27,698 bases of DNA from a virus. The DNA is taken from positions 1-27,698 of the IMG/VR virus record IMGVR_UViG_3300048126_000041; one strand, given 5' to 3'. The translations under genes were made by a program, and so were the position numbers. Below the pieces are notes generated by a model, which ran no database searches, was not told the DNA's origin, and saw nothing but the letters and a program-made list of their open reading frames with translations. Positions 1 to 9,373 of the stretch are shown one piece after another (positions within the stretch are counted from its first letter, which is position 1; every line of letters starts with the position of its first letter).

Positions 1-3000
1 GTTAGTTAAGTTCTGCACACGTACACCAAAGTTCTTAGTAGACTGTTGAGCACCTTCATTACCGTATGCACTTATCTTAGTAGGCATAGCATCAGACCCT
101 GTGAGACCCATTAAGAGTTCAGCAGTTGTGTCTAAGTACTTGAGTGAATCCCCAACAAACTTATTACCCTGTGATGTATCCTTAGGTGACTGGTCTTTAC
201 CTAACGCCATACCTAATGCTGTATCAACAGGCTCTAAAGGTCTCAAGAAACCAGATAAAGCTTGAGCACCAATCTCTGATACTATCTGACCTGCTTCACC
301 ACCTGCCTTAACAAACTCTGCTTCAAGTAATGCAGTACCGAAGTCTGCAAACTCACCTACAGTTTTAGTAAGGTTACGTGTTAGACCTCCACCACCAAAG
401 TCTTTACCTACTTGTGCTAATAACTCAGGTGGTACTTCTTCACCTGCTCTGTTATAAGATAACAATCTAGAAGCTGCTTTGAATAATGAGATAGGATAAT
501 CGTATTGTTGTGATACAACTTGTCCATCTACTACTTCATCGTATAAACCTAGACCCATCTTACGGTTCTCATTCTCGTCTAATGACATTGTATAGATGAT
601 ACCTGTAGTTACAGAACCTCTTACTGCTAAGTCTGCATAAGAGTTGTTGTTATACTTACCAGATGCTTTAGCCATCCAGTTAAGACCTGGTGTGTTCTTA
701 ACACCGAAGTCTATAGTGTTGTTAAAAAACTTACCAAACGGTATCATAAAGCCTAGACCTGGGATGTTACGTGCATCCTCGATCATACCTGCTAATTGAC
801 CTAGTTTAGTTTTGTTCTTATATGATTGAGAGAAGGTGTTTTCGTGTACCTTAGTAACAGCGTCCATCTCCATTTGTTTATACTGTTTTGTAGCCATGAT
901 CTGAGTAATATCAGACCTGTTATAAAATTCATTCCAAGACTGATTGAATGTAGTTCTTACCTGTTTGTTCATCTGAGCTACATACTCTTGTGACTTAGTG
1001 AAAGCATCTTGAGCATTAACAAATGTCAAAGATTGCACAGTATCAATATACTTGTCTGCACCACCTTGTAGCTTACTACCCATACCACCTAGCTTAGCCA
1101 TCTGCTCAGTAGTGTTAGCAACGTCAACACCACCTGATAGTGTACGTGTTAGTTTGTCCATAGCACCAGTGTTCTTTAATAGAGCACTCTGGTAAGCAGC
1201 GTATGTCATATCAGGGTCTAGTAAGAACCTAGCACGATCAACAGTAGATGATAGTATTAGCTGCCTACCTATTGCTCTTGACTTAGCACCGTCTTTTGCC
1301 ATACCTGCTATTTGTTGGAACATACCTTTACCACCATACAGTAAACCTTTTACTATATCTACAGATGTGTCTAACCCTGCGGCGGCTCCATAACCTACTA
1401 CGTTTAATGCAGAAGTTGATGGGTGAGATACTAGCGATCTAATAAACTTGTTCTGTATCTCAGATACGTTAGCTAGTACTTTACCCTTACCTTTATATCT
1501 ATCTTTAGCAAGTGTAATATCTCTAAGCATAGTCAAACCTAATGCATCTTCTACAAAGTCATTGAAGTCTAAGTCATCAATACTCTTGTCCATACGCTTA
1601 GCTACTTGCATAACACTGTTCATACTACGAGCACTCTCATTCATCTTGTTAGCAAATGAATCACCAAATGTCTCAGGTGTAATCTTAGTATTCTTACGCT
1701 TAGCTTTACCACCAAACACAGACATAATATCATTAATGTCGTCTTGGTCTAGTTTTGTTTTCATAAAGTCAGCAATGTAGTTTGACATCTTGTCATCTTC
1801 ATCACGTTTAACGAAGTAGTAACCACCCTCTTGCATGATCTCTGCTAGACCTTTAAGTTGAGTCTTACCATCAGCATCATTAACACCTAATAATAGATCA
1901 ATGAAGAAGTTAGTGTCACCCTTAGTGATGTCCTCACCCTTCTTTACCTTAGTTACCCAAGCGTCTGCTTCTCCTGGTGCACTCTTTATATAGTCTTCTA
2001 ATGACTTCTTTAATTCCTTAACCATGTCTTTAGGGTTAGCTTCTTTAACTACCTGATTAACAAGAGCTTGGTTAGATGTACCACGTTTAAGTATTACACC
2101 TGCTTGTATACCGCCCATAGCCATTGATGACAAAGCGGCTAAGCCTACTGCACCCTTACTTATTTCACCTTGTACGTTAGTCTCTACCAAACTTCTTTGA
2201 TATAGATACTCCATACCTGCATTAGCTACGGCATCGACTGCTGTGGCTGTGCCTATTTCTTTTAGAGCTGATGTATTCATTACCTTTTGAATACCTTTGT
2301 TAGCTGCTAGATTAGCAGAGAACTTAGCTATCTCTTCAGTACCTTCTTTAGCAACTTGCCTAGAAGTCTTTAATATAACATTAGTACCTGCTTTAGCAGC
2401 TACTTTTTCGGAAGCACCCTTTAATAACTGCTTAGTTATTTCTTTCTGTGCTGCTTTCTGAGCTGTCTGTACGCCTACCTTAACAGTACCACCACCTATA
2501 AACTTACCTAGAAAACCCCCTACTAAGTTGATTGGGTCTAATAGTACTGATGCTGTGTAGTCTTTGACACCCTCACCAAACTCTCTCCAAGTAACACCAT
2601 CTCCAGTAAGGCTTTCCATGCCCTCGAAGATAGCATAGGCTTTACCTGCTTTAAGCAGTCTTTCTGGATCGTCTTTTACATCCATTAAGAAGTCTATCTC
2701 AGATACACCTCTGATAGTATTACCCCCTGCAACACCACGTCTGCTGTTTAGGAATGTATCAACAATGTCTGCTTTACTTTTGTTTTCTACTGCTTGTAAA
2801 CCAAATCTGTCTTCAACATAATCGAAGATAGGATTGTATAACTCATCACGTTCAGACATATCATTTTGTGAATATGAATAAGCATCAACACCTATCGGTA
2901 AACCAACTAAACCATCATCACCTATAAACTGAGACATTTGTGTGTCCATTGACATCTCAATAGGGTCTTCACCCCTAGCAGTGTAACCTGCTAAGAAGTC

Positions 3001-3240
3001 TTCTTCATCATCTACATCAGAACGTGCAGTATATCCCTCTAGAAAGCTTGGAGGAAGCTCGTCAGTAGTGTCACTTGAAATATCATCTACAGGCTCTACA
3101 GAGGCTTCTATGGGCTCCTGAGAGCGTTCTGTGTACCCTTCTGGTATGTCTAAGTCTATACTAGGTGAAAATACTGGTTTATTTAATCTTTCAAGACGTT
3201 CTTGTGCTGTCTCTAGTCCAATAGGTGCTCTTGCTGGCAT
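1..3240 (-). CDS. Giant internal/ejection-type virion protein, 5' part (runs off left edge)
   Basis: An open frame reads from ATG at 3240 to the left edge without a stop: 1080 codons seen, the C-terminus missing. An AAAGGGG ribosome site lies just before the ATG, and the upstream gene stops 12 bases earlier. The acidic N-terminal 100 residues carry three copies of a GYT(A/E)R motif (residues 35-39, 69-73, 85-89). The rest is Ala/Lys/Gly-rich and mostly helical in appearance. Stretches rich in small and hydrophobic residues (for example around residues 325-360) could be amphipathic or membrane-active. Size and place, last in a cluster of large proteins after the tail genes, match the internal virion/DNA-ejection proteins of podoviruses (T7 gp16-like role). 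That role is inferred from position; no catalytic motif was recognised. Confidence 0.75.
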   Translation of the reverse strand, partial: MPARAPIGLETAQERLERLNKPVFSPSIDLDIPEGYTERSQEPIEASVEPVDDISSDTTDELPPSFLEGYTARSDVDDEEDFLAGYTARGEDPIEMSMDTQMSQFIGDDGLVGLPIGVDAYSYSQNDMSERDELYNPIFDYVEDRFGLQAVENKSKADIVDTFLNSRRGVAGGNTIRGVSEIDFLMDVKDDPERLLKAGKAYAIFEGMESLTGDGVTWREFGEGVKDYTASVLLDPINLVGGFLGKFIGGGTVKVGVQTAQKAAQKEITKQLLKGASEKVAAKAGTNVILKTSRQVAKEGTEEIAKFSANLAANKGIQKVMNTSALKEIGTATAVDAVANAGMEYLYQRSLVETNVQGEISKGAVGLAALSSMAMGGIQAGVILKRGTSNQALVNQVVKEANPKDMVKELKKSLEDYIKSAPGEADAWVTKVKKGEDITKGDTNFFIDLLLGVNDADGKTQLKGLAEIMQEGGYYFVKRDEDDKMSNYIADFMKTKLDQDDINDIMSVFGGKAKRKNTKITPETFGDSFANKMNESARSMNSVMQVAKRMDKSIDDLDFNDFVEDALGLTMLRDITLAKDRYKGKGKVLANVSEIQNKFIRSLVSHPSTSALNVVGYGAAAGLDTSVDIVKGLLYGGKGMFQQIAGMAKDGAKSRAIGRQLILSSTVDRARFLLDPDMTYAAYQSALLKNTGAMDKLTRTLSGGVDVANTTEQMAKLGGMGSKLQGGADKYIDTVQSLTFVNAQDAFTKSQEYVAQMNKQVRTTFNQSWNEFYNRSDITQIMATKQYKQMEMDAVTKVHENTFSQSYKNKTKLGQLAGMIEDARNIPGLGFMIPFGKFFNNTIDFGVKNTPGLNWMAKASGKYNNNSYADLAVRGSVTTGIIYTMSLDENENRKMGLGLYDEVVDGQVVSQQYDYPISLFKAASRLLSYNRAGEEVPPELLAQVGKDFGGGGLTRNLTKTVGEFADFGTALLEAEFVKAGGEAGQIVSEIGAQALSGFLRPLEPVDTALGMALGKDQSPKDTSQGNKFVGDSLKYLDTTAELLMGLTGSDAMPTKISAYGNEGAQQSTKNFGVRVQNLTN

Positions 3241-3251
3241 GTTTTACCCCT

Positions 3252-5300
3252 TTATTGGTTTACTGAGTTAACTAGTGACGTTATCCGTACTTCTATCTCT
3301 TCGTCACTCATGTGAACACTTGCATTCTTATACTTCTTATTGAACTCTTTTATAGCCCACTCAACTCTTTTATTCTTAGGTGTTCGAGGTGGTATAGAGT
3401 CTACTACATCATTAACTTTATCTGTTACTATTGCAACATTTGCTTCTGTTAAGTCCATAGGTTTCTTTGCAGTAGGTTTATCTTGGAATGATCTATCTAC
3501 AAACGTGTCTGTATCTATTTCTCTCTCACCAGGTCTACTACCTTCTACTTGTTCTTTAGTAGTTGCTGAACCTGGTCTAAATATACCTTCAGCTTGTTGA
3601 GCAAAATACTTATCTACAGCACCTTCTTCTTTAAGATTACCACCTTCCTCAAATTCAGCAGCGATAGCATCTTCTACACTAAGTTGCTCACCTTTATCAT
3701 TAGTTAGCATAGCCTCTTGACCAGAATCTCCTGATTCATTACGATCATATATTTTACCTTTGTATCTAATTGGGCCTGTATAACCACTGTCTTTAGCTTT
3801 CATAAACTCTTGTGGTGACTTAGCTTCGTATATTGAATCATCAGTTGCGTTAGAAGAACTAGGTAACTCAGGGTTAACAAGAGGTACAATAGGGTCTTCT
3901 ACTTCGTCTACTTTGTCTATTTTTACCTCTACAGGTTTATCTAGTTGATTACCATAGTAAGACTTAATAACACCTATATCTGCCATGTTATTCTCTGTTA
4001 CAGCATCCATACCTAAACCATAAGAAGCTAGTACGTCTAGTGACTCTGTACGTCTTTCTTTACGTTGTAGTCCTGTTAGAGCATTGTCTATCTTACGACG
4101 ATCTTCTGGTGGGAAGCTATCAAGTTTTCTATAAGCATCTGTTTCAATAGCAGTTTCCCAATACTTAATCTTCTCAGACTTAGTTTTAAGGTCATCAGGT
4201 GCACTTGTTTGTATGAATAACTCTTCAGCAGGTTTATAGTTCTTAAGAGATAAAAGACCTTTAATAAAAGAATCTTTATCGTTTAAATCCATCTCACCAC
4301 TCATAAGAGCATCAATAGTTTCTTTAGCTTCAGCTCCACCTCTACCATCAACAGAACCTGCATGTCTAAAGTACTTAGGTAACTCATCTAGTTTTACTGT
4401 GTTACCCTTCTTAGCTTGTAGTTCCACAAAAGCCATAAGAGTTGCTTGAGTAGCAGGGCTATTAGCTGCTGCTTTAAAGAAATCAGACTCTTTAGCTTCA
4501 TCACTTAGGTTTTTATACTCAGCGTTAAATAACTTAGAACCTGAAGTCATAGCTTCTACAGACATAGCATGTCCTTTAGAACCTGCAGAACCTCCACCTT
4601 CTCCTGCAATGATACTAGCTAAGCTAGCAGGTATCATAGACATCATTTCTTTAGCTTTCTTAATTTCTAACTCATCTTTTTTAAGTTGGAATCCTTGCTG
4701 TGCTAACTCTTCAGAAACACCTGCTGCTCTAGTCTGTTCTACAAACTGCTTTTCACGAAATGCATAGTTCTCATCAGCAATTTTTTGATTAAACTTAGTT
4801 ATCTCTATTTGACGAAGTGTTTCGGCTATTGCTCTAGCTTCTGCTCTATTCTTTCGTAAATCTTCTGCACGATCTCTTAGTTTACCATACTGTTGCATCT
4901 CAAGTGTATTATCAAACAGAGCATCTGCTCTCTCTTTAGTTTGTTCAGCAGTAAGTTTAGTTAAATCCCACTTCTCAACTTTCATACCCCATTCTGATTT
5001 TTTCCACTTTTGATCAGCAAAGAAACCACGATCAAGATTCTTTTGAGCTAGTTCTTCTCTTGCTAATCTATCTGTACGATCTTGTTCATAAATCAGTGCA
5101 GCTCTATCGTTAGTGATATTCCATTGACGTAAATCCTCAATCCTCTTAGCTTCAGCACGTTGATCAAGTATCTCGTCCCTTTTTACATTATACTCAAAGG
5201 CCTCTTTACGTTCTGCTCTACGTGCCTCTAGCTCTTCTTGCTCTGCCTTCGCTTCTTTAGCGTCCTTAAACCCTTTTGCTACACCTGACCAGAAACTCAT
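3252..5300 (-). CDS. Coiled-coil internal virion protein (682 aa)
   Basis: The N-terminal 230 residues are extremely rich in Glu, Lys, Arg, Ala and Gln with few helix breakers and look like long coiled coil. A Gly/Ser break (around residues 231-240) leads into a mixed-charge C-terminal half with an acidic Pro/Ser linker near residues 460-485. The ATG at 5300 overlaps the previous stop as ATGA and has an AAGGAG ribosome site 7 bases upstream, so translation is probably coupled. It lies between a conserved hypothetical and the giant internal protein, so a structural or ejection role is inferred from context. I recognise no enzyme motif. The frame is certainly coding; the function is unproven. 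Confidence 0.75.
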   Translation of the reverse strand: MSFWSGVAKGFKDAKEAKAEQEELEARRAERKEAFEYNVKRDEILDQRAEAKRIEDLRQWNITNDRAALIYEQDRTDRLAREELAQKNLDRGFFADQKWKKSEWGMKVEKWDLTKLTAEQTKERADALFDNTLEMQQYGKLRDRAEDLRKNRAEARAIAETLRQIEITKFNQKIADENYAFREKQFVEQTRAAGVSEELAQQGFQLKKDELEIKKAKEMMSMIPASLASIIAGEGGGSAGSKGHAMSVEAMTSGSKLFNAEYKNLSDEAKESDFFKAAANSPATQATLMAFVELQAKKGNTVKLDELPKYFRHAGSVDGRGGAEAKETIDALMSGEMDLNDKDSFIKGLLSLKNYKPAEELFIQTSAPDDLKTKSEKIKYWETAIETDAYRKLDSFPPEDRRKIDNALTGLQRKERRTESLDVLASYGLGMDAVTENNMADIGVIKSYYGNQLDKPVEVKIDKVDEVEDPIVPLVNPELPSSSNATDDSIYEAKSPQEFMKAKDSGYTGPIRYKGKIYDRNESGDSGQEAMLTNDKGEQLSVEDAIAAEFEEGGNLKEEGAVDKYFAQQAEGIFRPGSATTKEQVEGSRPGEREIDTDTFVDRSFQDKPTAKKPMDLTEANVAIVTDKVNDVVDSIPPRTPKNKRVEWAIKEFNKKYKNASVHMSDEEIEVRITSLVNSVNQ

Positions 5301-5800
5301 AACTCTTCTCCTTTTCTAGCCATTAAACCTTTAGGTTCTTCCATAGGCGTATCTATTGATAACTCTTCTTGCATAGGCTCTTCAACTTCTTCGTCCTCAA
5401 CCTCCATATCAAGATCAGCAAGCATGTCTTTAGCTTTCTTTTCGTTGATTTGGTATTCGATTGCGTCATCTAGCTCACTGTTATCAGGTAAACCTTCATC
5501 GTACTCAATGCCTAGTTTATCGGCAGTAGATGTGATGTACTCGTGTATAACTGGTGCTATAAGTAACGATACATCTATGCTATGCCTCCCATTAAGCACT
5601 GCACCTCGTAGCAGACCCTCAGTGATTGTTACAACGTCAAGACCTAATTCTAAAGTATCTGCTAGTGCTTTAAACTTATCTTCATCTTGAAGACGTGTTA
5701 AATGCCACATAAGAGCATCTTCTGGAGTATTATACTCAGGTGGGTTTTCGTATGGTGCGTTCTTTGGCTCTGCAGTCAGCGACTGTCCAGGTATAATCAT
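5297..5800 (-). CDS. Conserved phage hypothetical protein (167 aa)
   Basis: The start at 5800 has AAGGA 8 bases upstream. The N-terminal two thirds is a compact, probably globular domain containing the segment RGAVLNGRHSIDVSLLIAP (about residues 65-83). I recall similar segments in hypothetical proteins of marine phages, but know no function. The C-terminal third is strongly acidic (runs of Glu/Asp from about residue 130) and likely disordered. It lies between the lysozyme-like gene and the coiled-coil protein and overlaps the latter by 4 bases. A virion or assembly-chaperone role is possible from context only. Confidence 0.7.
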   Translation of the reverse strand: MIIPGQSLTAEPKNAPYENPPEYNTPEDALMWHLTRLQDEDKFKALADTLELGLDVVTITEGLLRGAVLNGRHSIDVSLLIAPVIHEYITSTADKLGIEYDEGLPDNSELDDAIEYQINEKKAKDMLADLDMEVEDEEVEEPMQEELSIDTPMEEPKGLMARKGEEL

Positions 5801-5812
5801 TTACATATTCCT

Positions 5813-6466
5813 TTATTTGAATTTGTTGTAGTAGTCAGATAGCTTAGTTCCGAACTTATCAGCAGGGTCATACTTGCCGTTAGTTTTAAAGAACTTCTTC
5901 ATACCTGTCTTACCGCCTAAGTGAGCTACTGCTCTTAAACCATCTCTTGACATTTTACCAGACTTATCTAATTTGTCAATAGTAGAATCAATATCTTTCA
6001 TATGCCATTCAAATACTTTTTCTTGTAACTTAGGCTTACGTTTGAATGTTTCTGTAGAAAACTCCATACCTTCTGATTTCATAAAGTCTTTTAGTCTAGC
6101 GTCTGAAAACTGATAAGAACCAGTCATCTTACGACCATCATCTAATTTTATCTGTGCATCTGACTTACCACTACTCTCTGAGTCTTTGAGTTTCATAGCA
6201 AATGATTTCATTCCAAGACCCTCTGGCCTAGCTTTTGGTCTCTGAAAGGCCCTCATCATAGATAACCCCATACCTTCTTCTGGCATTGACTGTTTTTCTA
6301 CACTCTGAGGACGTAGACGTGGGCGCATCAAACCTGATTCACTTGACTCCTCTTCTACTGTATCTTCTGGAGCTTCTTCACCTATGTCTGACTGTAGGTT
6401 TTCTATTAGAGCCTTACGGGCCATTTCTAAGTTCTTAAGGTATACACCTTTATTCATTGGAACCAT
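5813..6466 (-). CDS. Lysozyme/lytic-transglycosylase-like virion protein (217 aa)
   Basis: Residues about 88-217 resemble a lytic-transglycosylase-type fold. An ESSG motif (Glu97) fits the catalytic Glu-Ser of that family, followed by GSYQF (116-120) and a conserved-looking HLGG (182-185). The first 85 residues are acidic and Arg/Pro-rich, likely a linker or virion-targeting tail. There is no signal peptide, and the gene sits among internal virion proteins rather than beside the holin. This suggests a virion-carried peptidoglycan hydrolase that helps the ejection channel cross the cell wall, rather than the lysis endolysin. An AGGAGG ribosome site precedes the chosen ATG at 6466; the in-frame ATG at 6457 is too far. 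The enzyme assignment is by motif and is moderately sure. Confidence 0.6.
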   Translation of the reverse strand: MVPMNKGVYLKNLEMARKALIENLQSDIGEEAPEDTVEEESSESGLMRPRLRPQSVEKQSMPEEGMGLSMMRAFQRPKARPEGLGMKSFAMKLKDSESSGKSDAQIKLDDGRKMTGSYQFSDARLKDFMKSEGMEFSTETFKRKPKLQEKVFEWHMKDIDSTIDKLDKSGKMSRDGLRAVAHLGGKTGMKKFFKTNGKYDPADKFGTKLSDYYNKFK

Positions 6467-6468
6467 TA

Positions 6469-8550
6469 CTACATCCCTCCTAGCATTTGACCGAATAGGT
6501 ATCCAATACCTTCTTTGTCTTTTTGTTTATTAGCTTGCTCAGTTTCCCACATAGATAACGTCTTAGACTCATTAGCCAAGAAAACACTAAGTGCCCTATC
6601 AGTAGCACTTTCAGATTGTTTAAATGCGTAGTCCATTATGTCACGCTCACGTTGCCATACTGTATCTAATATCTGCTGTGTAAACAGATTAGCTGCTTTA
6701 GCTGACTCTAGATTAGCTACGTTTTGAGCTTGTGAGTTAATTGTAGTAGTGTTCTGTCTCCATTGAGCATTAGCTTGAGCTATTACTAATGCGTTTTGTG
6801 AGTTAAACTGATCACGTTGAACTTCCATACCTGCATTAAACTGCTGTACTTGTGTAGCCATATTAGCAAAGAACTGGTTAGTTTGGTTTTCACTAGATGC
6901 ATTAAACTGCTTAGCTGCATTAGTAGCAGCTTGGTCACTAAAGATAGCTTGTATGTTAGACTGTACTTTAAATAGATCAGTTTGTTGTTGAAGGTCTAAG
7001 TTCTTCATATCCATTTGCATGAAAGCCTGAGCATTCATAACAGCCGCTTGTTGACGATTATTTAAGTTTTGCATATCCATCTGTGACATAGCAGCTGCAT
7101 CAGCCATCATCTTAGCATTTACAGCGTTAAGATTGGTTATGTCTACTGTCTGAGCCATACGAGCGTTCTCAAGAGCTATCTGCTGTTCAGCAGTAAAGTT
7201 CATATTAGCTACATCAGCTATTCTAGATGCATTAGCTACTCTTGCTTGAAACTCTTGTGAGAACTCTAGGTTCAAGAACTGAGCACGTTGTTCTGCCGCA
7301 AACATAGCTGTTTGTTGTCTATTAGATAAATTCTGTGATTCAAACTTAGCAAACGTCTGTGAGTCTGCCATTGCTATTGGTAGGGCTGATTCCATAGCTG
7401 CTTGCACAAGTGCTTGACCTGCCATAGAAGAAGCACCTAAACCTCTTTGTGCCATCTGTGCCGATGCATTACGCAATGCACCTGCTGCCCATGCAGGAGG
7501 ATTAGTGCTATCAAAGTCTAACATCAACTGGCTTAGTTGACCTTTTACTGTAGCTTGTTCTGAAGGGTTTGCTTGAGCTGCTTGTATATCAAGAGCTGCG
7601 TTAACTTCTGCCATGTCTACCGCAGAACCTGAGATCAGTTCTCCAGACTCTATAATACGTTTAGCGGTAGGTGATACTTTCTGTGCATTTGCAATTTGTT
7701 GTGCTTCTAACTCTCTAGCCGATAAAGTAGCAGGGTCTTTAGTTTCAGCGTCTACTAAAGCATTAGGGTCAACAGTGCCTTGTACAGCTGTTACACTATC
7801 TGTCTCTGCCTTTACACTGTCCGCTGCTTTAACAGGGTCTACAGAGGCTGCGTTGAACGTGTCAGGTGTTGTTATCTGAGGAGCATTAGGGTCTAGTGCA
7901 CCAGTACCTGCTGCAATGGTAGTTCCTTCAGCATTCGGGTCTATTTTATCGACTGCGGCGGTAGTAGCCATAGTCCCAGGGGCTGTAACAGAAGCTTCCA
8001 TCATATTACCTGATGCAGTCTTAATCTTATCTGACTGTTGTTTAGCTAACTCCTCTTTAGTTGGAGGTGTTGGGCCTTTTGCTATAGCTGCGTCTACTGC
8101 TGCTTGTTTAGCAGGGTTCAGTACATCTCTGCTTTTTCTGTCTCTGATTGCTACAGCTTCTTCATATGTGTAGTTGTATGACTCAGGCTCTGCCATTAGT
8201 ATAGCATTTGCAGTAGTAGGGTTATTCTCTGGCCCTTGAGTACCGTACAATGGCATACTAATATCCTGGATAGGGCTTACTTGATTTCCAGGAGTATTTA
8301 TCTGATTGTTTTGATCATCACCACTTCTATCTAGATAAGCTGAACGCTCTTGAAGGGTAGCAGGGTCACTACCCATTACAGCATTACCTTGACTATCTTT
8401 TATAACAGCACCTGTGTTAGTATTAGTAATAGGTTGTGCAGTAGTAGGTCTATTAGCCGCTTGCTCCTTACCTTCATCTGTACCACCATAAGTAATCATA
8501 CCAGAACCAACTGGATTAAGTATTCTTTGCATTGAAAATGGATTATACAT
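6469..8550 (-). CDS. Ejection-type internal protein with exact 22-residue repeats (693 aa)
   Basis: The N-terminal half (about 1-330) is low-complexity, rich in Asn, Thr, Pro, Ala and Asp, and probably disordered. A segment around residues 352-390, containing AQRGLGASSMAGQA, looks like a conserved domain of internal proteins in marine podoviruses. From about residue 387 to 628 the chain is Ala/Gln/Asn/Met-rich and repeats with a strict 22-residue period, each unit ending in Asn-Leu/Phe-like positions. This suggests a long helical rod built on an 11-residue (hendecad) pattern. The ATG at 8550 has AGGA 10 bases upstream, inside the end of the preceding gene. Position after the tail fibres and before other giant proteins supports an ejection or internal-core role; that is inference. 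Confidence 0.75.
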   Translation of the reverse strand: MYNPFSMQRILNPVGSGMITYGGTDEGKEQAANRPTTAQPITNTNTGAVIKDSQGNAVMGSDPATLQERSAYLDRSGDDQNNQINTPGNQVSPIQDISMPLYGTQGPENNPTTANAILMAEPESYNYTYEEAVAIRDRKSRDVLNPAKQAAVDAAIAKGPTPPTKEELAKQQSDKIKTASGNMMEASVTAPGTMATTAAVDKIDPNAEGTTIAAGTGALDPNAPQITTPDTFNAASVDPVKAADSVKAETDSVTAVQGTVDPNALVDAETKDPATLSARELEAQQIANAQKVSPTAKRIIESGELISGSAVDMAEVNAALDIQAAQANPSEQATVKGQLSQLMLDFDSTNPPAWAAGALRNASAQMAQRGLGASSMAGQALVQAAMESALPIAMADSQTFAKFESQNLSNRQQTAMFAAEQRAQFLNLEFSQEFQARVANASRIADVANMNFTAEQQIALENARMAQTVDITNLNAVNAKMMADAAAMSQMDMQNLNNRQQAAVMNAQAFMQMDMKNLDLQQQTDLFKVQSNIQAIFSDQAATNAAKQFNASSENQTNQFFANMATQVQQFNAGMEVQRDQFNSQNALVIAQANAQWRQNTTTINSQAQNVANLESAKAANLFTQQILDTVWQRERDIMDYAFKQSESATDRALSVFLANESKTLSMWETEQANKQKDKEGIGYLFGQMLGGM
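6667..7392 (-). repeat. Coding region of eleven 22-residue repeats
   Basis: Residues 387-628 of the 693-residue protein split without gaps into 22-residue units (66 bases each). For example, units start at residues 409, 431, 453, 475, 497, 519, 541, 563, 585 and 607. Shared features are Gln near position 5, Ala near 7 and 11, Gln near 16 and Asn-Leu/Phe at 21-22. The DNA copies have diverged, so constraint is at the protein level. Confidence 0.75.
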
Positions 8551-8552
8551 TC

Positions 8553-8969
8553 TTAGAACATCCTCTTGTGTAACTTGTTCCTATTATAGAATCTTCGGAA
8601 GTGGACTTGATTAGCGGTTCCGTATAGTTCTGTAGTCGTGTTCCTTATGGCTCTCATCATCTTACGTGTATGACCAAAAGGAGCTATGAATTCTATACCC
8701 CATAAATCATCTGAGGTATTTTGTTTGTAATCTTCTGCAGTAGGTTGATATTTATCGTTTAAGAAGAGATTAGACTTAGTAGTTGATAACCAACACCAAG
8801 TTATTAGTCCTACAGGCTTATCGTCTTCATAATAGATTCTTATCTTATCATGTTCTATAGGAAGAAGGAGAAAGGTATTAACATGACTTGGAGTATAATA
8901 AGAGTGTATATCTCCTAACTCCAATAAGCTAATACCATCTACTACAGCTTTGTACTTGTCTATAACCAT
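8553..8969 (-). CDS. HlyC/RTX toxin-activating lysine-acyltransferase-like protein (138 aa)
   Basis: The sequence resembles the HlyC family, which moves fatty acyl groups from acyl-ACP to lysines of RTX toxins. The resemblance runs through His29 in TPSHV (aligned with catalytic His23 of HlyC), the LLPIEHDKIRIYY strand, GLITWCWLS (54-62), AEDY, and WGIEFIAPFGH (90-100), aligned with the HlyC WFIDWIAPFG segment. The catalytic Asp92 of HlyC is Glu93 here. The protein is shorter than HlyC (about 170 residues), mainly at the C-terminus. No RTX toxin is present in the window, so the substrate is unknown; a virion or host protein is possible. It is the first gene after a consensus promoter, and its start lies in a small hairpin. 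The family call is from motif memory; activity is uncertain because of the Asp-to-Glu change. Confidence 0.7.
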   Translation of the reverse strand: MVIDKYKAVVDGISLLELGDIHSYYTPSHVNTFLLLPIEHDKIRIYYEDDKPVGLITWCWLSTTKSNLFLNDKYQPTAEDYKQNTSDDLWGIEFIAPFGHTRKMMRAIRNTTTELYGTANQVHFRRFYNRNKLHKRMF

Positions 8970-8984
8970 ATAGTATACCTATAT
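8968..8984 (-). promoter_or_regulatory. Small hairpin covering the ribosome site and start of the acyltransferase-like gene
   Basis: ATATAG and CTATAT form a 6-bp stem with a 5-base loop. The 3' arm takes in the first two bases of the ATG at 8969, and the AGG ribosome site lies at the 5' arm/loop. It could limit translation, more so at low temperature, but the stem is AT-rich and weak. Confidence 0.35.
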
Positions 8985-9007: not shown

Positions 9008-9036
9008 ATTATACACATGTTTTACACATCTGTCAA
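9008..9036 (-). promoter_or_regulatory. Consensus sigma-70 promoter, internal-protein unit
   Basis: On the minus strand, TTGACA (9036-9031) and TATAAT (9013-9008) are separated by exactly 17 bases, a full match to the sigma-70 consensus. An A/T-rich UP-like tract lies just upstream (9040-9062). The expected start is near 9001, giving a leader of about 32 bases before the ATG at 8969. It lies in the only gap between the Cys-rich gene and the acyltransferase-like gene. Confidence 0.85.
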
Positions 9037-9067: not shown

Positions 9068-9373
9068 CTACCATTTATTATCTGGACAAGCGGAGCTTGC
9101 AATCATGGTTTTTGCGGGCATAAAACACTTACAAACACTACAAATATTTAAAGTTTTCTTATCACAACTATTACATATGTCTAATCTAGCTTGAGAAAGT
9201 TCTGTACTTGCAAAAAACCCTTCTGGCTCATCTACTTTAATAACTTCAGCAGTTGATACAAAACCAATAACACACTCTTCTTCTATATGAAACACTGGAG
9301 AGTATTCTCCATCACTTGTTCTAATTTTGTAAAAACCAACTTCAAGGTTATGCGGTATAACTTCTTGCGTCAT
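9068..9373 (-). CDS. Cysteine-rich putative zinc-binding protein (101 aa)
   Basis: The C-terminal third carries six cysteines (Cys67, 70, 78, 81, 83, 96) in a CxxC-x7-CxxCxC-x12-C layout around CKCFMPAK and ends in CPDNKW. This is a compact metal-binding signature of a kind I recall in small proteins of cyanophages and other marine phages. Function is unknown. The N-terminal 60 residues look like a small beta domain without recognised motifs. The ATG at 9373 overlaps the adhesin stop as ATGA and is preceded by GGAG 7 bases upstream, so it is probably coupled to the adhesin. An adhesin-associated or assembly role is possible but unsupported beyond position. Confidence 0.7.
   Translation of the reverse strand: MTQEVIPHNLEVGFYKIRTSDGEYSPVFHIEEECVIGFVSTAEVIKVDEPEGFFASTELSQARLDICNSCDKKTLNICSVCKCFMPAKTMIASSACPDNKW

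What the first reader, a model, noticed from the sequence alone, without database searches (positions are those of the whole stretch)
8553..8984. Phage-encoded HlyC-like lysine acyltransferase with no toxin nearby
Seen: His29 in TPSHV, WCWLS, AEDY and FIAPFG in HlyC order. Known: HlyC-family enzymes acylate lysines of RTX toxins using acyl-ACP. Odd: the catalytic Asp of HlyC is Glu93 here, the C-terminus is shortened, and no RTX protein is in the window. The gene heads a transcription unit of ejection proteins. Inference: it may lipidate a virion/ejection protein, giving membrane affinity, or modify a host protein; it could instead be a catalytically altered binding domain.
Basis: partly seen in the sequence, partly recalled or inferred. 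Interest (0 to 1): 0.78.

Follow-up and report, generated by a model that had tools for sequence, protein, structure and literature searches.

The report
Phage acyltransferase paired with virion protein
A marine virus of bacteria carries a relative of the enzymes that attach fatty acids to bacterial toxins, but here it sits at the head of virus-particle genes, in a position that related viruses fill with other acyl-transferring enzymes, so it probably modifies a part of the virus rather than a toxin.

Summary
The 138-aa protein (8969-8553, minus strand) is a real HlyC-family protein: Pfam PF02794 E 5.1e-16; confident AlphaFold2 model (pLDDT 91.5) nearest to ApxC (Z 16.7, next 10.2). Position 93 is Glu (54) or Asp (38), so catalysis is probably kept. 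The gene follows an exact sigma-70 promoter consensus and opens a late-type gene block of an HMO-2011-type podophage. No RTX protein was found.

Two results go further. In sister phages the same slot holds HlyC, a GNAT-fold protein (type A) or a Pfam-GNAT (type B): 8, 12 and 12, with none in 12, of 44 readable loci. The protein encoded next door carries an N-terminal peptide (YNPFMP...FGGGG) shared across unrelated bodies. Counting near-identical loci once, 36 of 36 693-family proteins beside HlyC have it and 0 of 68 without an acyltransferase upstream.

Best reading: an acyltransferase for the adjoining virion protein, in the position of T7 gp13. Donor, acceptor and activity are untested.

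The parts
8553..8969 (-). HlyC-family (PF02794) acyltransferase-like gene, 138 aa
8904..8906 (-). codon of His22, aligned with the catalytic His of ApxC
   Evidence: alignment; H in 89 of 92, Y in 3
8691..8693 (-). codon of Glu93, aligned with the catalytic Asp of ApxC
   Evidence: E 54, D 38 of 92
   Evidence: H in 1 of 92
9008..9036 (-). exact sigma-70 promoter consensus TTGACA-N17-TATAAT before the gene
   Evidence: the same two hexamers stand upstream in 15 of the 16 contigs L001-L016 (L011 is cut short); score 10 or more of 12 in 35 of 78 distinct upstream regions against 2.2% of random 120-mers
6469..8550 (-). 693-aa protein, first gene after the acyltransferase; HMO-2011 gp25 family, virion role inferred
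8476..8550 (-). N-terminal peptide of the 693-aa protein (about residues 1-25), the acyltransferase-linked tag
5813..6466 (-). 217-aa protein, C-terminal endolysin-like PHROG match
   Evidence: phrog_26675, E 1.7e-10
5297..5800 (-). 167-aa protein of the same block, family shared with phages lacking HlyC
3252..5300 (-). 682-aa protein of the same block, no family match
1..3240 (-). large protein (1080 aa or more, runs off the contig), end of the block as held

Best explanation
It is an HlyC-fold protein acyltransferase that serves virion assembly, not a toxin. SHOWN: family and fold; His and carboxylate at the two catalytic positions; promoter consensus plus gene order at the head of the block; exchange with two other acyltransferase families in the same slot of sister phages; and an N-terminal peptide on the adjoining protein that goes with the enzyme. 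INFERRED: during late infection it takes an acyl chain (from host acyl-ACP, as HlyC relatives do) and puts it on the protein encoded next to it, recognising or modifying that protein's N-terminal peptide, and the acyl group helps that protein assemble into, or act from, the particle at the host envelope. It would be the counterpart of the small protein next to the internal virion genes of T7 (gp13) and of the Cobavirus GNAT there. Rough confidence by step: HlyC fold and family 0.97; acts in the virion module 0.75; active acyltransferase 0.7; acyl-ACP donor 0.55; the adjoining tagged protein is the substrate or docking partner 0.5.
For: Family and fold: (73 of 73 aligned sequences hit PF02794). 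Catalytic positions. Position: promoter; among ORFs starting -15 to +60 bp from the HlyC stop, the longest starts -11 to +3 bp from it in 115 of 115 loci. Slot exchange: CRP-235 has HlyC; CRP-3, CRP-212 and CRP-738 have GNAT type A, all before the same gene family and lysozyme; type A models as GNAT, type B hits PF00583 in 10 of 10 tested, 7 above the curated cut-off; lysozyme-anchored sample: HlyC 8, A 12, B 12, none 12 of 44 readable (80 fetched), or 7, 8, 8 and 8 when loci sharing a 200-mer count once; no fetched locus shows two types on the strand read. Tag: by regular expression in 70 of 73 693-family proteins beside HlyC and 1 of 83 with none upstream; by a profile trained on HlyC-linked N-termini only, loci sharing a 200-mer counted once, 36 of 36 against 0 of 68, and 12 further clusters beside GNAT-A, mostly on other protein bodies. 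Other lineages: HTVC115P HlyC follows a 693-family gene; three pelagiphage siphoviruses carry it between tail genes. T7 gp13: 138 aa, behind promoter phi13, before genes 14-16; Cobavirus authors liken a GNAT there to gp13 (PMC6775973, passages). HlyC kin can act on a non-RTX protein: CdiC on the CdiA receptor-binding domain (PMC8510554, abstract and passages).
Against: No activity, donor or acylated virion protein is known. No lysine kept beside HlyC and lost elsewhere in the 693-, 167- or 1080-aa families (strongest: a 1080-family lysine in 0.88 of HlyC-bearing against 0.58 of the others); the 682-aa and gp29 families were not tested so. 31 of 46 tag stretches have no lysine in the first 32 residues. 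HlyC is dispensable for the family: 47 of 80 best 693-family loci lack it with over 2 kb of upstream held, 7 have it. 12 of 44 readable lysozyme-anchored loci have no acyltransferase found. The CRP-235 group mostly has MGGGGG in place of the full tag, and type B neighbours have neither. The slot exchange was seen in the CRP-235 group; the window's own group has HlyC directly before the 693-aa gene and no GNAT form was found there. Tag and enzyme could have been inherited together rather than working together. Tyr stands at the His position in 3 of 92, in four pelagiphage homologues and 2 of 6 bacterial ones, Ala in another (alignment).
Confidence: 0.5

Rival explanations
1. Host-directed enzyme: it acylates a host protein during infection, and its place in the block is only convenient expression.
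For: A phage N-acetyltransferase of a phiKMV-like phage is reported to act on host RNA polymerase; the authors of pelagiphage Skadi-1 cite it for their acetyltransferase downstream of the internal core genes and suggest host reprogramming, though they judge polymerase cleavage unlikely there (PMC10504331, passages).
Against: The N-terminus of the adjoining protein changes with the enzyme type; tail or ejection-type neighbourhood in several phage lineages; late position (inferred).
Confidence: 0.17
2. Assembly chaperone or scaffold: an acyltransferase fold used for binding the tagged protein, with no catalysis, as Pfam's name for T7 gp13 (probable scaffold) suggests.
For: Pfam calls T7 gp13 'probable scaffold protein'; Tyr for His in 3 of 92 and in four pelagiphage homologues; no acceptor lysine found.
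Against: Strict carboxylate at 93 and His in 89 of 92; replacement by two GNAT families, whose known common feature is acyl transfer.
Confidence: 0.18
3. Small-molecule N-acyltransferase (acylating an amine or a lipid head group), for example to alter the host membrane.
For: GNAT-fold enzymes that use acyl-ACP on small amines exist (recalled, no call).
Against: PF02794 and ApxC are the nearest relatives by a wide margin; tag co-variation.
Confidence: 0.05
4. It modifies another gene product of the same block, such as the 217-aa endolysin-like protein, rather than the adjoining one.
For: Lys18 of that family is kept in 22 of 23 distinct HlyC-bearing members.
Against: Other HlyC-bearing phages have a different second gene without that lysine, so it cannot be the general substrate.
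Confidence: 0.1

Closest known systems
HlyC / ApxC toxin-activating acyltransferases (PF02794; ApxC structure 4whn)
   Same: Sequence family, fold (Z 16.7 over 129 residues), catalytic His position, carboxylate at the catalytic Asp position
   Different: 138 aa, shorter at the C-terminus; Glu for Asp here; no RTX protein found; head of a virion-type gene block instead of a toxin operon
CdiC of class IV CDI systems (PMC8510554, abstract and passages)
   Same: HlyC-type enzyme working on a non-RTX protein
   Different: Substrate is the CdiA receptor-binding domain; a CdiA-like gene was not searched for here
T7 gp13 (PF11090) and Cobavirus GNAT next to the internal virion genes (PMC6775973, passages)
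   Same: Small gene beside internal virion genes; in T7 directly behind a promoter and before genes 14-16
   Different: No sequence match to PF11090
CRP-235 gp30 and pelagiphage HTVC115P, HTVC026P, HTVC111P, HTVC112P proteins, already annotated as lysine or RTX toxin acyltransferases
   Same: Same Pfam family, tail or ejection-type neighbourhood
   Different: CRP-235 gp30 is 34% identical and has Asp; the others have Tyr at the His position
'hlyC (hemolysin C, a toxin)' listed among abundant virulence genes of marine phages (PMC7003362, two passages)
   Same: hlyC reported from marine phages before
   Different: Read there as a virulence gene; whether those sequences are this family was not checked

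Membership tests
HlyC sequence family (PF02794) | score over the curated Pfam cut-off | tested here: met
   59.2 bits against 25
HlyC sequence family (PF02794) | TAAT fold | tested here: met
   model pLDDT 91.5; 4whn E 1.6e-8, next entry 2.9e-3; Z 16.7 against 10.2
HlyC sequence family (PF02794) | catalytic His | tested here: met
   His22 aligns with ApxC His; 89 of 92
HlyC sequence family (PF02794) | carboxylate at the catalytic Asp position | tested here: met
   Glu93; E or D in 92 of 92. Asp itself is not present in the window protein
HlyC sequence family (PF02794) | acyl transfer from acyl-ACP to a protein lysine | not testable with these tools
   needs biochemistry
Toxin-activating system (acyltransferase with RTX protoxin) | RTX protoxin encoded in the same genome | tested here: not met
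   PF00353 in 0 of 8 records; PF02382 over cut-off in 0 of 8, one sub-threshold match (13.6 bits) in the record of L010; the window record is a fragment, so limited to what is held
T7 gp13 family (PF11090) | sequence match to PF11090 | tested here: not met
   only PF02794 at E up to 1
T7 gp13 family (PF11090) | position: promoter, then small gene, then internal virion genes | tested here: inconclusive
   promoter consensus and adjoining gene shown; virion role of the window genes is inferred
GNAT superfamily | GNAT-like fold | tested here: met
   Z 8 to 10 with GNAT entries
GNAT superfamily | acyl-CoA as donor | not testable with these tools
   the review says the RtxC structure lacks elements that bind CoA (PMC8339906, passages)

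The most novel reading that the evidence does not exclude
Podophages carry a two-part virion acylation module: an exchangeable acyltransferase (HlyC type, probably using acyl-ACP, or GNAT type, probably using acyl-CoA) and a portable N-terminal peptide with a glycine linker on the adjoining ejection or tail protein, which the enzyme recognises and acylates at or near its N-terminus, giving a lipid-anchored or acetyl-capped particle protein. Swapping the enzyme swaps the acyl group.
Probability: 0.3. Interest if true: 0.87.

Novelty: new variant of a known kind. Interest (0 to 1): 0.7.

Why it matters
HlyC enzymes are known from toxins and, in CdiC, from an LPS-binding effector. Here the family appears at a position that related phages fill with GNAT-type enzymes, beside a protein whose N-terminus goes with the enzyme. 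That turns the open question of what the small gp13-type protein ahead of podophage internal virion genes does into a concrete test: look for an acyl group on one named protein of CRP-235 (HlyC) and CRP-3 (GNAT) particles. HMO-2011-type phages are described as among the most abundant known marine viral groups (PMC6918029, passages), so the answer would apply widely. It also cautions against reading phage hlyC as a toxin or virulence gene, as one survey of marine phages does (PMC7003362, passages).

Tried and rejected
Lysine hunt after the CdiC logic (a lysine present only where the enzyme is present): none in the 693-, 167- or 1080-aa families. The 217-aa family's Lys18 looked good (22 of 23) but is absent from the second genes of other HlyC-bearing phages, so it is clade-specific at best.

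One common neighbour as substrate: the two downstream families (78 and 37 of 115 loci) show no homology (hhalign probability 0.1%), which is why the shared N-terminal peptide matters.

N-terminal glycine acylation: the CRP-235 group mostly starts MGGGGG, but the window group's proteins start MS 19, MI 13, MY 6, ML 6, MR 1, MN 1 of 46, so it is not general. Poly-glycine alone is not specific either: 9 of 83 untagged 693-family proteins have it near a start by the loose pattern.

A first count of the slot (37 HlyC, 24 GNAT, 2 unreadable of 63 gp29-family loci) came from loci fetched by HlyC or GNAT queries and is biased; the lysozyme-anchored sample was made to check it. There 36 of 80 loci were too short upstream; all 8 HlyC loci and 9 of 12 GNAT-A loci share sequence with loci fetched earlier, none of the 12 GNAT-B loci does. 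The 12 without an enzyme include some where the lysozyme follows a tail-fibre-like gene with no gp29-type gene between (for example L376, L384, L404).

The Fisher value for tag against HlyC (1.7e-39) ignores relatedness and is no probability; the cluster counts are the better measure and still treat related phages as separate. In one search L038 and L039 were scored as 'HlyC elsewhere' though HlyC is 2 bp upstream, and L353 and L410 are chance regex matches. In one search the 115 hits are 76 beside HlyC (the training stretches among them), 35 beside GNAT-A (some being the same contig fetched twice), 2 at contig edges and 2 weak ones (E 0.022, identical tag stretches) with no acyltransferase.

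Bacterial relatives (6 loci) are longer, 156-202 aa; not followed further. One search failed (search term too short). Paper searches on phage HlyC (one search listed 20 of 112) showed none that studies a phage copy; PMC7003362 only names hlyC among listed genes in the passages seen.

Full report
WHAT IS THERE. The ORF is on the minus strand, 8969 to 8553, 138 aa. Pfam finds HlyC (PF02794) at E 5.1e-16 over residues 18-112. A profile of 73 phage sequences finds ApxC (4whn) at E 7.5e-9. The window is a 27,698-base IMG/VR virus record. Its packaging, head and tail genes match SU10, GP4 and P22-type podophage families, and the gene after HlyC has homologues in HMO-2011, CRP and HTVC phages among others (27 records).

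RELATIVES. A first scan gave 16 viral contigs, an alignment scan 123 relatives of which 80 were kept, and a CRP-235 query 35. Ninety-two distinct sequences, the window's included, were aligned: position 22 is H in 89 and Y in 3; position 93 is E in 54 and D in 38; position 29 is H in 1. HMMER aligns His22 with the ApxC histidine in the place known as catalytic, and Glu93 with its aspartate (roles from PMC8510554, passages). In a 55-row tree the HMO-2011-type proteins form one group of 45 rows (97/95), and Asp and Glu change at least five times.

FOLD. The AlphaFold2 model (72 rows, pLDDT 91.5, pTM 0.86) is nearest to ApxC (Foldseek E 1.6e-8; Z 16.7, rmsd 2.4 over 129 residues); GNAT-like entries follow at Z about 10. 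Among predicted viral proteins the best match is an 'HlyC' of an uncultured phage, so phage copies were already in databases.

POSITION. An exact sigma-70 consensus lies at 9036-9008. Of 78 distinct upstream regions of HlyC genes, 35 score 10 or more of 12, against 2.2% of random 120-mers. Among ORFs starting -15 to +60 bp from the HlyC stop, the longest starts -11 to +3 bp from it in 115 of 115 loci: it belongs to the 693-aa family in 78 and to the CRP-235 gp29 family in 37. These two show no homology. RTX families are absent from eight records searched, apart from one sub-threshold match in another record. T7 gene 13 has a similar layout: promoter phi13, a 138-aa protein, then genes 14, 15 and 16.

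HLYC IS AN OPTION, NOT A CORE GENE. Among the 80 best 693-family loci, 7 have HlyC next door and 47 with more than 2 kb of upstream DNA lack it; the rest have less upstream DNA and none was seen in them.

THE SLOT IS SHARED WITH OTHER ACYLTRANSFERASES. CRP-3, CRP-212 and CRP-738 have the CRP-235 arrangement (slot gene, gp29-family gene, lysozyme), but their slot holds another family, annotated 'putative acyltransferase' in CRP-738. Its model (29 rows, pLDDT 84.7) is a GNAT fold (113 PDB matches at E 0.001 or better; best Z 13.6). To count without choosing by the slot gene, I fetched 80 loci by the lysozyme. Of 44 with a readable slot, 8 hold HlyC, 12 this GNAT type A, 12 a further type B, and 12 none; with loci that share a 200-mer counted once, 7, 8, 8 and 8. 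Type B hits Pfam PF00583 in 10 of 10 tested proteins, 7 of them above the curated cut-off. No locus fetched up to then shows two types on the strand read. Profile comparison finds no detectable sequence kinship between HlyC and either GNAT type.

THE NEIGHBOUR'S N-TERMINUS GOES WITH THE ENZYME. The protein after HlyC in the window's group typically begins M..YNPFMP...VFGGGG; after GNAT type A, on a different protein body, it begins like M..YNPFMP.R.LNPRASGLIVF.GGG or a variant of it; the window protein begins MYNPFSMQRILNPVGSGMITYGG. By a regular expression, 70 of 73 693-family proteins beside HlyC have it and 1 of 83 without an acyltransferase upstream does, that one by chance. A profile trained only on 46 HlyC-linked N-termini, run on 3,691 ORFs, hits 115: 76 beside HlyC (training members included), 35 beside GNAT type A, 2 at contig edges where the slot is not held, and 2 weak ones (E 0.022) with no acyltransferase. 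With loci that share a 200-mer counted once, these are 37, 12, 2 and 1 clusters; and among 693-family genes 36 of 36 clusters beside HlyC are tagged against 0 of 68 with none in at least 2 kb upstream. After HlyC in the CRP-235 group the peptide is mostly reduced to MGGGGG; after GNAT type B it is different again.

OTHER PHAGES. HTVC115P carries an HlyC homologue 6 bp after its 693-family gene. Siphoviral pelagiphages HTVC026P, HTVC111P and HTVC112P (siphoviral by their annotated tape measure genes) carry one between tail genes, overlapping the next tail gene; all four hit PF02794 over the cut-off and have Tyr at the His position.

READING. An acyltransferase, of whichever family, seems to be wanted at this point of the block in many of these phages, and what it is paired with is the N-terminus of the adjoining protein. 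The most likely mechanism is acylation of that protein, with the peptide as recognition site or acceptor. HlyC relatives use acyl-ACP (PMC8953716 and PMC8339906, passages), so the HlyC version would add a fatty chain. What does not fit: no conserved lysine in the peptide (15 of 46 have any in 32 residues) and no HlyC-specific lysine in the three families compared. Either the N-terminal amine or another group is the acceptor, or the peptide is only a docking site, or it has a separate job in the particle. CdiC shows that the family can work on a non-RTX protein, and that its target lysine is lost where cdiC is absent (PMC8510554, passages).

VERDICT. Real, a member of the HlyC sequence and fold family, with no sign of a toxin system, probably the gp13-position acyltransferase of this phage. 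New are the three-way exchange and the linked peptide; I found neither described in the papers searched (listings; passages only of the twelve papers opened).

Noticed in passing
window 5813-6466 and relatives: The 217-aa protein has a conserved N-terminal stretch (YLKNLE.ARKAL ... GLMRP.ARP) joined to C-terminal halves that differ in relatives (overall identity down to about 0.2), like a packaging or docking signal on exchangeable lytic domains.
   Followed up: partly
L019:10300-10590, L017:25300-25572, L022:10300-10524: C-termini of the 693-family differ: HMO-2011 gp25 has an added domain, and CRP-235 gp25 and CRP-3 gp24 end in a stretch that in CRP-235 matches a 'DNA ejection protein' and a tail-fibre PHROG.
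   Followed up: partly
L024:6394-8508 (Pelagibacter phage HTVC033P): Two 2OG-Fe(II) oxygenases and a putative ferrochelatase are annotated just before its 693-family gene: other enzymes at the same spot.
   Followed up: no
L336, L337, L338 (HTVC026P, HTVC112P, HTVC111P): HlyC homologues with Tyr instead of the catalytic His, lying between tail genes just before a large tail protein that starts MGG or MAMGG.
   Followed up: partly
L350:589-1002: An ORF that reads like the start of a cellular gyrase B (recalled, not tested) lies next to a phage lysozyme block: possible chimeric contig; it was counted as 'none'.
   Followed up: no
window 9068-9373: The small gene before the promoter matches DUF6171 (PF19668, E 1.7e-6, just over its cut-off).
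   Followed up: no
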